DNA of 40,896 nucleotides from Patulibacter medicamentivorans (GTDB lineage Bacteria; Actinomycetota; Thermoleophilia; Solirubrobacterales; Solirubrobacteraceae), in assembly GCF_000240225.1 (NCBI RefSeq), contig NZ_AGUD01000039.1, forward strand, positions 1 to 40,896, given 5' to 3'. The position numbers and the translations under genes were made by a program. How positions within the stretch are numbered: the stretch's first letter is position 1; every line of letters begins with the position of its first letter. Of this stretch, positions 15,205 through 17,029 are shown in pieces. The notes below the pieces were generated by a model. The model was given only the letters and a program-made list of their open reading frames with translations. It was not told where the DNA came from and did not search any database.

Positions 15205-15238
15205 CCCTCGGCTGGTTCGCGCGCGGACCAGCCGAGGG
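15205..15238 (+). terminator. Perfect 12-bp hairpin after serA
   Basis: CCCTCGGCTGGT (15205-15216) pairs perfectly with ACCAGCCGAGGG (15227-15238) across a 10-base loop, 12 bases after the serA stop. There is no U tract. It probably ends the serC-serA transcript and separates it from the leuA leader promoter, whose -10 box begins nine bases later. Confidence 0.7.
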
Positions 15239-15246
15239 AGCGCTGC

Positions 15247-15391
15247 TACGCTGCCCGGCAGTCATGGCTCGGCGCCTCGACCTCGCTCTTCTGCTCGTGC
15301 TCCTCCCCCGCTAGGGGGAGCGATGCGTGGCGGCCGCGAAGCCGCGAACTCACAGCAGGCAGGATCCGAGGACGAGCCCCACAGGAGACAC
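15247..15391 (+). promoter_or_regulatory. leuA promoter and leader-peptide attenuator region
   Basis: A TACGCT box (15247-15252) lies 11 bases before the ATG of a 16-codon leucine-rich peptide. At the end of the peptide, CTCCCCC (15303-15309) pairs perfectly with GGGGGAG (15314-15320) around GCTA, and this hairpin includes the leader stop codon. A second small hairpin (GCGGC/GCCGC) follows near 15330-15346. The leader segment GTGCTCCT (15297-15304, Val-Leu-Leu codons) is complementary to the leuA ribosome-binding site AGGAG plus CAC (15383-15391) with one bulged A. Ribosome stalling at the leucine codons could therefore expose the leuA site. The model is inferred from sequence. Confidence 0.65.
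15264..15314 (+). CDS. leuL: Leucine-rich leader peptide of leuA
   Basis: This is a 16-codon frame encoding MARRLDLALLLVLLPR, followed by TAG. Seven of sixteen residues are leucine (five CTC, one CTT, one CTG), with clusters of three and two in a row. It sits 84 bases before the leuA start on the same strand. A TACGCT box 11 bases upstream gives a nearly leaderless transcript. Leader peptides with runs of the end-product amino acid are the hallmark of ribosome-mediated attenuation, and such leaders are known for leuA in several actinobacteria. The encoded codons overlap both a hairpin and an anti-ribosome-binding-site segment. Confidence 0.8.
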   Translation: MARRLDLALLLVLLPR

Positions 15392-15397
15392 CCGACC

Positions 15398-17029
15398 ATG
15401 ACCACGCCCAGCGACCCGAACCGGGTCATCATCTTCGACACCACCCTGCGCGACGGCGAGCAGTCGCCGGGCATCTCGCTCAACAAGGGCGAGAAGCTGG
15501 AGATCGCCCACCAGCTCGCGCGGCTCGGGGTCGACGTGATCGAGGCCGGCTTCCCGATCGCCTCGCCCGGCGACTTCGAGGCGGTCCAGGCGATCGCCCG
15601 CGAGGTCGACGGCCCGGTGATCGCCGGGCTCGCCCGCGCCCAGGCCGGCGACATCACGCGGGCGGGGGAGGCGGTCCGCGACGCCGCGAAGCCGCGGATC
15701 CACACCTTCATCTCGACCTCCGACATCCACATCGAGCACCAGATGCGCAACACGCGCGCCGACGTGCTCGAGGGCGCCAAGGCGGCGGTCGCGCACGCCA
15801 AGTCGCTCGTCGACGACGTCGAGTTCAGCCCGATGGACGCCACCCGCGCCGACCCGGAGTTCACCGCCCAGGTGCTCCAGATCGCGATCGACGAGGGCGC
15901 CACGACGATCAACGTTCCCGACACCGTCGGCTACGCGACCCCCGACGAGTACGCGGAGTTCCTGAGCAAGCTCTACGAGTACACGCCGGCCCTGCGCGAC
16001 GTCGTGCTCTCGGTCCACTGCCACGACGACCTCGGGCTGGCGGTCCCCAACTCGCTGGCCGGCCTGTCGGTCGGCGCGCGCCAGGTCGAGTGCGCGGTCA
16101 ACGGGATCGGCGAGCGGGCCGGCAACACCTCGCTCGAGGAGATCATCATGCTCCTGGAGACCCGCAGGGACCGGCTCGGCTACACGACCGGCGCGGTCAC
16201 GACCGAGATCGCCCGCACCAGCCGCCTGGTCTCGCGCCTGACCGGCTACGCGGTCCAGCCGAACAAGGCGATCGTCGGCCGCAACGCCTTCAGCCACGAG
16301 TCGGGGATCCACCAGGACGGGGTCCTCAAGAACCGCCAGACGTTCGAGATCATGGACCCGGCCTCGATCGGGATCGACGACGCCGAGCAGCTGGTGCTGG
16401 GCAAGCACTCCGGTCGGGCCGCGCTGAAGGACGCGCTGTCCAAGCTCGGCTACGAGCTCGACGGCCAGGCGCTGCGGCAGGCGTTCGACAAGTTCAAGGA
16501 GGTGGCCGACCGCAAGAAGCAGGTCACCGCCATGGACCTCGAGGCGCTGGTGACCGACGAGCTGCGGGGCGACGACGCGGTCGGCGCCTTCCGGCTGGTC
16601 AGCTACGCCGTCGAGGCGACCAGCGACGCCCGCCCGCCGCACGCCGTGGTCGTCGTCGGGACGCCCGATCGCGGCGAGGTCTCCGGGTCGTTCACCGGCG
16701 ACGGCCCGGTCGACGCGGTCTTCCGGGCGATCGACGCCGCCGTCGGGGTCGACGCCCGCCTGCGCGAGTACCGGGTCGACGCGGTCACCGGCGGCCAGGA
16801 CGCGCTCGCCCAGGCCTCGGTCGTCGTCGAACTGGGGACCGCCGGCGCGGCGGTCCGCTGGGACCTGCCGGGCGTCGTGGCCGGCGACCGCGTGACCGGT
16901 GCCGGCCAGGCCGTCGACACCGACACGATCCGGGCGTCGGCGATCGCCTACCTGCGGGCGGTCAACGTGGCGGCCCGCAAGCTCGCCGCCGGGCATCGCG
17001 CCGACGGGGCGCTCGAGCCGACGCCCTAG
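15398..17029 (+). CDS. leuA: 2-Isopropylmalate synthase
   Basis: LeuA condenses acetyl-CoA with 2-oxoisovalerate, the committed step to leucine. It has 543 residues from the ATG at 15398 (AGGAG 10 bases upstream); an in-frame ATG at 15323 falls in the attenuator region and is rejected. The barrel motif DTTLRDGEQSPG is at 14-25, the metal-binding HCHDD with His207 and His209 is in SVHCHDDLGLAVPNS, followed by GIGERAGNTSLEE at 236-248 and FSHESGIHQDGVLKN at 298-312. Residues from about 400 form the C-terminal allosteric domain that binds leucine, so feedback inhibition is expected besides attenuation. It is the short bacterial form of about 510-550 residues, not the 600-residue corynebacterial one. 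Confidence 0.96.
   Translation: MTTPSDPNRVIIFDTTLRDGEQSPGISLNKGEKLEIAHQLARLGVDVIEAGFPIASPGDFEAVQAIAREVDGPVIAGLARAQAGDITRAGEAVRDAAKPRIHTFISTSDIHIEHQMRNTRADVLEGAKAAVAHAKSLVDDVEFSPMDATRADPEFTAQVLQIAIDEGATTINVPDTVGYATPDEYAEFLSKLYEYTPALRDVVLSVHCHDDLGLAVPNSLAGLSVGARQVECAVNGIGERAGNTSLEEIIMLLETRRDRLGYTTGAVTTEIARTSRLVSRLTGYAVQPNKAIVGRNAFSHESGIHQDGVLKNRQTFEIMDPASIGIDDAEQLVLGKHSGRAALKDALSKLGYELDGQALRQAFDKFKEVADRKKQVTAMDLEALVTDELRGDDAVGAFRLVSYAVEATSDARPPHAVVVVGTPDRGEVSGSFTGDGPVDAVFRAIDAAVGVDARLREYRVDAVTGGQDALAQASVVVELGTAGAAVRWDLPGVVAGDRVTGAGQAVDTDTIRASAIAYLRAVNVAARKLAAGHRADGALEPTP

What the first reader, a model, noticed from the sequence alone, without database searches (positions are those of the whole stretch)
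15247..15397. leuA leader peptide with seven leucines and an anti-ribosome-binding-site segment
The 16-codon frame MARRLDLALLLVLLPR sits between a TACGCT box and leuA. Its stop codon lies in a perfect 7-bp hairpin. The Val-Leu-Leu codons GTGCTCCT (15297-15304) can pair with the leuA ribosome-binding site AGGAG and the CAC after it (15383-15391), one A bulged. This suggests a translational attenuator: ribosomes stalled on leucine codons would keep the site free. Leader-peptide control of leuA is known in actinobacteria, but this particular pairing scheme is read here from sequence.
Basis: partly seen in the sequence, partly recalled or inferred. Interest (0 to 1): 0.65.

Follow-up and report, generated by a model that had tools for sequence, protein, structure and literature searches.

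The report
Leucine-sensing leader locks leuA translation
A tiny leucine-rich reading frame in front of the leucine-synthesis gene leuA very likely works as an RNA switch: when it is empty it folds onto the start of leuA and shuts it, and a ribosome starved of leucine on it keeps leuA open; it is a lineage-specific variant of a leader described in other actinobacteria in 2005.

Summary
In detail: a 16-codon, seven-leucine frame, a -10 box just before it, a 7-bp hairpin at its stop codon and the named complementarity are all present. It is not chance: the same leader lies directly upstream of leuA in about 105 relatives across the class, and a -10-like box ends 6-16 nt before the leader start in 99 of 107.

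It belongs to the kind published in 2005 as the actinobacterial "LEU element". The general reading, a leader-peptide translational attenuator, is supported.

What coevolves is a two-part long helix. Leu codons pair with a purine block upstream of the SD (nearest-relative swaps, p=4e-6). The leader's own start region pairs in fixed register with the leuA start, AUG against AUG (p=0.005; all four Watson-Crick types at one position). In a sister family the Leu codons do pair with the SD, as in the 2005 scheme.

Modelled stalling at the first or second Leu codon makes the leuA start about 5 kcal/mol easier to open; a ribosome at the stop codon does not. No experiment backs this yet.

The parts
15247..15252 (+). 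-10 box TACGCT; its end is 11 nt before the leader ATG, so the transcript should begin only a few nt before the ATG (near-leaderless)
   Evidence: in 99 of 107 relatives a TANNNT box ends 6-16 nt (mostly 8-11) before the leader start. Transcript start itself not mapped.
15264..15314 (+). leader ORF MARRLDLALLLVLLPR*, seven Leu codons
   Evidence: homologous leaders in relatives, consensus LDLRLLLLPPRGE* or ...LLPR*
15261..15272 (+). 5' strand of the outer helix: leader start region, GTCATGG pairs 15396-15402 and TCGG pairs 15392-15395
   Evidence: mean pair probabilities 1.00 and 0.92; register-specific covariation
15276..15298 (+). 5' strand of the inner helix: Leu-codon stretch pairing with 15355-15376
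   Evidence: coevolution
15303..15320 (+). hairpin P2 (7 bp, loop GCTA) with the leader stop codon inside
   Evidence: P 0.99; 98.7% of cells paired in 63 sequences
15330..15345 (+). hairpin P3, GCGGC 15330-15334 with GCCGC 15341-15345
   Evidence: 98.7% of cells paired in 63 sequences. In the window alone the thermodynamic fold is ambiguous here
15355..15376 (+). purine-rich anti-leader strand that pairs with the Leu codons (3' strand of the inner helix)
15383..15387 (+). leuA Shine-Dalgarno AGGAG, mostly in an internal loop between the two helices in the predicted off state
15392..15402 (+). 3' strand of the outer helix, containing the leuA start codon 15398-15400
   Evidence: covariation
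15398..17029 (+). leuA, 2-isopropylmalate synthase, the controlled gene

Best explanation
A leucine-sensing translational attenuator. Shown by comparison: a conserved short Leu-rich ORF just after a promoter, two conserved hairpins, and a long helix in which (inner part) the Leu codons pair with a purine block upstream of the SD and (outer part) the leader's own start region pairs with the leuA start codon and the bases before it. Inferred mechanism: the leader is read as soon as it is made. With enough charged tRNA-Leu the ribosome finishes and leaves, the long helix forms, the leuA start is closed, and the leader's own start is buried with it. When leucine is short the ribosome stops at an early Leu codon (first at codon 5 in the window), its footprint covers the 5' strand of the helix, and the leuA SD and AUG stay open. 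The outer helix is the lock; the Leu codons are both sensor and inner strand.
For: Conserved leader and promoter position; element directly upstream of leuA; also before a second, unrelated-type leuA (L046), before leuS heading a leuS-leuA2 stretch (L061, L227), and with Val/Ile/Leu codons before ilvB (L144, L145). Swap tests in 63 elements: Leu codons x upstream block z -10.1, leader start x SD/start z -5.0, Leu codons x SD z -0.3. Swaps between 31 pairs of nearest relatives: p=4e-6, p=0.005, p=0.86 in that order. Outer helix: paired 59% against 46% expected in the true register, no excess in 12 other registers; 6 of 9 pairs with compensatory changes. Synonymous resampling of leader codons weakens the pairing (mean z -1.36 over the type). 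Footprint modelling: opening cost of the leuA start falls from 9.3 to 5.2 (median) with the first Leu codon in the A site, and from 9.3 to 2.0 in the window; unchanged with the ribosome at the stop codon.
Against: No expression, TSS or ribosome-profiling data for this lineage. In the window alone the duplex is only moderately better than dinucleotide shuffles (z -1.5) and than synonymous resampling (rank 0.30). The footprint model is crude, and any ribosome covering the leader 5' part, starved or not, would open the start; stalling at the third or last Leu codon does not open it in the window. Mutations of leader codons in Streptomyces coelicolor leuA did not behave as classical attenuation predicts (Craster 1999, as reported in PMC1262725). 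Patulibacter americanus has the leuA without the leader. With relatives paired on the tree, the true register is best of 11 but not by far (22 of 79 both paired, next 18).
Confidence: 0.7

Rival explanations
1. One reading: the Leu codons themselves (15297-15304) sequester the leuA SD (15383-15391).
For: The complementarity exists. Leu codons clearly pair with the SD in the sister family (27 elements, duplex about -15 kcal/mol) and in canonical LEU elements (PMC1262725).
Against: In the window, forced pairing costs 8.9 kcal/mol and has probability 0. No coevolution in 63 relatives. It could still be a short-lived alternative fold.
Confidence: 0.07
2. Transcription attenuation: leader translation decides between a terminator and an antiterminator, or Rho loads on the untranslated leader.
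For: Classical for amino-acid leaders; ilvB1 of M. tuberculosis works this way (PMC13236596). One phylum member (L207) has a leucine leader followed by a hairpin and T-run.
Against: No U-run after P2 or P3 in the window; in 85 of 90 elements no 8-nt stretch between P2 and leuA holds more than 4 T. Covariation puts the leuA start codon itself in the helix, which points to translation. Rho-dependent loss of the transcript is not excluded.
Confidence: 0.12
3. The leader RNA is the binding site of a regulatory protein (proposed for the LEU element in 2005, with the DEAD-box protein ML1624 of M. leprae as candidate).
For: P2 and P3 are nearly invariant; the authors of PMC1262725 preferred this because codon mutations in S. 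coelicolor had little effect on regulation.
Against: Leu codons replaced by Val/Ile/Leu codons before ilvB in the same scaffold (L144, L145), and the use of the element before leuS and a second type of leuA, fit sensing by codons. Long-helix covariation needs no protein.
Confidence: 0.08
4. The leader has no regulatory role now; its conservation reflects promoter spacing or common descent.
For: Lost in P. americanus without loss of leuA.
Against: Conserved over three or more families with compensatory base changes, and associated with four leucine or branched-chain genes.
Confidence: 0.03

Closest known systems
LEU element upstream of leuA in Actinobacteria (Seliverstov et al. 2005, PMC1262725)
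   Same: Leu-run leader ORF directly upstream of leuA, no intrinsic terminator, leader RNA pairs with the leuA translation start region, hairpins between.
   Different: There the base stem is Leu codons with the SD, plus a proposed pseudoknot. In the window's type the Leu codons pair with a block upstream of the SD, and the leader start region pairs with the leuA start codon. Two plain hairpins are seen here; a pseudoknot was not searched for.
LeuL1 leader of Streptomyces lividans leuA (PMC8079986)
   Same: Leaderless Leu-run leader (MRFGLLLLSCRGEGL*) before leuA, no terminator; similar loci were recovered here (L218, L220).
   Different: Shorter leader; leader-start pairing with the leuA start is weak or absent there; its leuA is of the other type (TIGR00970).
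Leaderless polycysteine uORFs of mycobacterial cys operons (translation attenuation; cited in PMC13236596, the original paper not held)
   Same: Leaderless uORF rich in the sensed amino acid; pairing between uORF and downstream RNA hides the SD.
   Different: Cysteine and other genes; comparison rests on the citing paper and general knowledge, not on sequence tests made here.
ilvB1 transcription attenuator of Mycobacterium tuberculosis (PMC13236596)
   Same: Branched-chain leader peptide sensing charged tRNA before a biosynthetic operon.
   Different: Acts through a Rho-independent terminator; none is seen here.

Membership tests
LEU element (Seliverstov 2005) | short ORF with a run of Leu codons directly upstream of leuA | tested here: met
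LEU element (Seliverstov 2005) | base stem formed by Leu codons and the leuA SD | tested here: not met
   in the window and 62 relatives of its type: forced pairing +8.9 kcal/mol, P=0, no coevolution; met in the sister family of 27. Hence filed as a variant of this kind, not as a plain member
LEU element (Seliverstov 2005) | conserved pseudoknot between the two stem strands | not tested
   only nested folds were computed; two local hairpins P2 and P3 fill this region
LEU element (Seliverstov 2005) | no intrinsic terminator between leader and leuA | tested here: met
translational attenuator with a leaderless uORF | uORF at the very 5' end of the transcript | tested here: inconclusive
   conserved -10 position in 99 of 107; transcript start not mapped
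translational attenuator with a leaderless uORF | uORF RNA pairs with the translation start region of the downstream gene, with covariation | tested here: met
translational attenuator with a leaderless uORF | starvation for the encoded amino acid raises translation of the downstream gene | not testable with these tools
   needs reporters or ribosome profiling; modelled only
transcription attenuator (trp/ilvB class) | hairpin followed by U-run before the gene | tested here: not met
Rfam families | match at the curated threshold | tested here: not met
   no match at gathering score in L001, L031, L105, L228 and others; the sub-threshold matches in the window are below the gathering scores

The most novel reading that the evidence does not exclude
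A start-to-start lock: the initiation region of the uORF base-pairs with the initiation region of the gene it controls, so one helix closes both and the messenger stays off once the leader has been left empty, while the Leu codons serve as the inner strand and sensor. This would be a distinct design of translational attenuator, typical of Solirubrobacterales, which has also been put before leuS and a second leuA type and, with recoded codons, possibly before ilvB.
Probability: 0.4. Interest if true: 0.65.

Novelty: new variant of a known kind. Interest (0 to 1): 0.5.

Why it matters
How the actinobacterial LEU element works was left open in 2005: codon mutations in Streptomyces gave puzzling results, and a protein was invoked. 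Here two related lineages use the same leader and hairpins with two different pairing schemes that converge on closing the leuA translation start, and one scheme shows clear coevolution. That favours control of translation by the leader ribosome and gives exact base pairs to mutate. It also shows that eye-found complementarity to an SD can mislead: the pairing that evolution keeps is next to it.

Tried and rejected
Rfam: only sub-threshold chance matches in the window (SAH riboswitch 21.8 bits, gathering 37; plant miRNA models on the serA-leuA inverted repeat) and none at gathering score. Transcription terminator: no U-run. Covariation test of Leu/SD pairing in the sister family: uninformative, both strands nearly invariant (z 0.6). 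A first stall model with the ribosome in the middle of the Leu run showed little opening in the window; stall at the first Leu codons does. The tree-based sign test on well-supported branches only had too few pairs to decide; replaced by nearest-relative comparisons. ilvB leaders were sought in 30 class genomes: none in Solirubrobacteraceae. L149 (second hit in the window's genome) is a GC-rich false positive.

Full report
What is there. The window holds serC, serA (ends 15193) and leuA (ATG 15398). Between serA and leuA lies TACGCT (15247-15252), a 16-codon frame MARRLDLALLLVLLPR* (15264-15314), a 7-bp hairpin with the stop codon in it (15303-15320), a second hairpin GCGGC/GCCGC (15330-15345), a purine-rich stretch and AGGAG (15383-15387). 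The genome is Patulibacter-like: its LeuA is 85% identical to that of P. americanus and its nearest relatives are Solirubrobacterales.

Conservation. DNA search of 40 relatives gave leuA upstream regions; 28 of 30 fetched loci carry a Leu-run leader followed by a C5/G5 hairpin and the GCGGC hairpin. A covariance model of this core found it throughout the class (about 100 places above 40 bits) and only weakly in the rest of the phylum. Of 115 extracted elements, 110 have leuA just downstream. The leader consensus is LDLRLLLLPPRGE* or ...LLPR*; in 99 of 107 a TANNNT box ends 6-16 nt before its start, mostly 8-11. This spacing implies a near-leaderless uORF, as was measured for Streptomyces lividans LeuL1 (PMC8079986); here it is inferred, not measured. 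Leu codons in the leader are CTC 51%, CTT 32%, CTG 13%; in the 5' part of the leuA genes CTG 46%, CTC 44%, CTT 5%, a choice that suits pairing with purines.

Which pairing. Base-pair probabilities split the elements into two types. In the window's type (63 sequences, type A) the Leu codons pair with a block upstream of the SD, and the leader start region pairs with the SD/start region. In the other type (27 sequences of one family, type B) the Leu codons pair with the SD (GAGAAGGAG) directly. Swapping leaders and downstream parts among type A elements: Leu codons x upstream block, native better by 3.3 kcal/mol, z -10.1; leader start x SD region, z -5.0; Leu codons x SD, z -0.3; leader start x upstream block, z -0.7. 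Swapping only between 31 disjoint pairs of nearest relatives, which controls for descent: 23 of 26 (p=4e-6), 18 of 26 (p=0.005), 15 of 26 (p=0.86) and 14 of 28 (p=0.92). Type B gives no signal because both strands hardly vary.

The outer helix has one register: leader base i with leuA base 1-i (A of each AUG = 0), so the two start codons lie in the same helix. In that register 59% of cells pair against 46% expected from column make-up; the 12 other registers show no excess (-0.04 to +0.02). At the second codon's first base the pairs are UA 24, GC 11, AU 4, CG 4 (49 of 63 paired, 26 expected). On the MAFFT alignment 6 of 9 outer pairs have changes on both sides and the whole structure (outer helix, P2, P3) beats all 500 shuffles and all slides. 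The leader base at that position changed at least 22 times on the leuA tree, so this is not one inherited event; with relatives paired on the tree the true register is the best of 11, though the next is close. In the window the outer helix is GTCATGG 15261-15267 / CCATGAC 15396-15402 (P 1.00) and TCGG 15269-15272 / CCGA 15392-15395 (P 0.92); the inner helix runs 15276-15298 / 15355-15376 with probabilities from 0.18 to 0.98. For the window on its own the duplex is only moderately better than shuffles (z -1.5); the case rests on the family.

Forcing 15297-15304 on 15383-15391 raises the best energy from -67.3 to -58.4 kcal/mol and its ensemble probability is 0.

How it should work. Blocking a 31-nt ribosome footprint in the fold and asking what it costs to open the leuA SD and start: type A median 9.3 (free leader), 5.2 and 5.0 (first and second Leu codon in the A site), 6.5 (third), 8.4 (last), 9.7 (ribosome at the stop codon). 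The window: 9.3 free, 2.0 at the first Leu codon (codon 5), 4.8 at the second, 9.4 at the third, 7.7 at the stop. Type B: 8.8 free, 5.7-6.2 from the second Leu codon on, 11.7 at the stop. So a leucine-starved ribosome should open leuA and a finished one should not. This is inference from a static model with no kinetics.

Function by association. The same scaffold lies before a leuA of the other type (L046), before leuS heading a leuS-leuA2 stretch (L061, L227) and, with a leader ending TLSFVLSIVVIPL, before ilvB (L144, L145). The sensed codons thus follow the pathway of the gene.

Relation to what is known. The 2005 LEU element is the same kind of thing: Leu-run leader, leuA, no terminator, leader pairing with the translation start (PMC1262725). 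Canonical elements recovered here (Streptomyces-like MRFGLLLLSCRGEGL*, Mycobacterium-like VQRVLLLGRRDGV*) mostly favour Leu-codon/SD pairing with weak leader-start pairing. Type A fails the base-stem criterion and is therefore filed as a variant. The literature held has nothing on such leaders in this class.

Limits. No expression data; the transcript start is inferred; only nested folds were computed; the split into types followed inspection of the same data, although the swap tests do not depend on the split for their direction.

Noticed in passing
L006 / L150 (Patulibacter americanus DSM 16676, upstream of leuA): The nearest named relative has leuA but no leader; a long GGAGTCCGCCGC...GCGGCGGACTCC inverted repeat fills the serA-leuA gap instead.
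   Followed up: partly
L061 (G050:C85) with L227: The leucine leader scaffold heads leuS (leucyl-tRNA synthetase), with a TIGR00970-type leuA just after the leuS end.
   Followed up: partly
L046 (G242:C43): The same leader scaffold sits before a TIGR00970-type leuA, not the leuA type of the window.
   Followed up: partly
L144 and L145 (G129, G224): The same hairpin scaffold before ilvB with a leader ending TLSFVLSIVVIPL, i.e. Val/Ile/Leu codons in place of the Leu run.
   Followed up: partly
L090 and L055 (G229:C50): Two tandem copies of the element about 1.1 kb apart; the first has no leuA after it.
   Followed up: no
L186, L187, L189, L190, L193, L197, L198 (family f23): A different conserved element upstream of leuA, TACGACTAnCCAGGGTGGCCnCCGGGCGAATTACCGGCCCGGCC, possibly coding a leader ending RITGPGL; no Rfam match at gathering score in those scanned.
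   Followed up: no
L207 (G401): Leucine leader MRSFALELLLR* before leuA followed by a hairpin and a T-run, i.e. a terminator-type attenuator in the same phylum.
   Followed up: no
window 15205-15238: Near-perfect inverted repeat (CCTCGGCTGGT...ACCAGCCGAGG) between serA and the leader promoter; likely the end of the serA transcript, without a U-run.
   Followed up: no
L228 (G000:C331:18509-20197): The window's genome has a second leuA of the TIGR00970 type without any leucine leader; several same-genus genomes (G001, G003, G004, G007) show no close match to the window's leuA type.
   Followed up: partly
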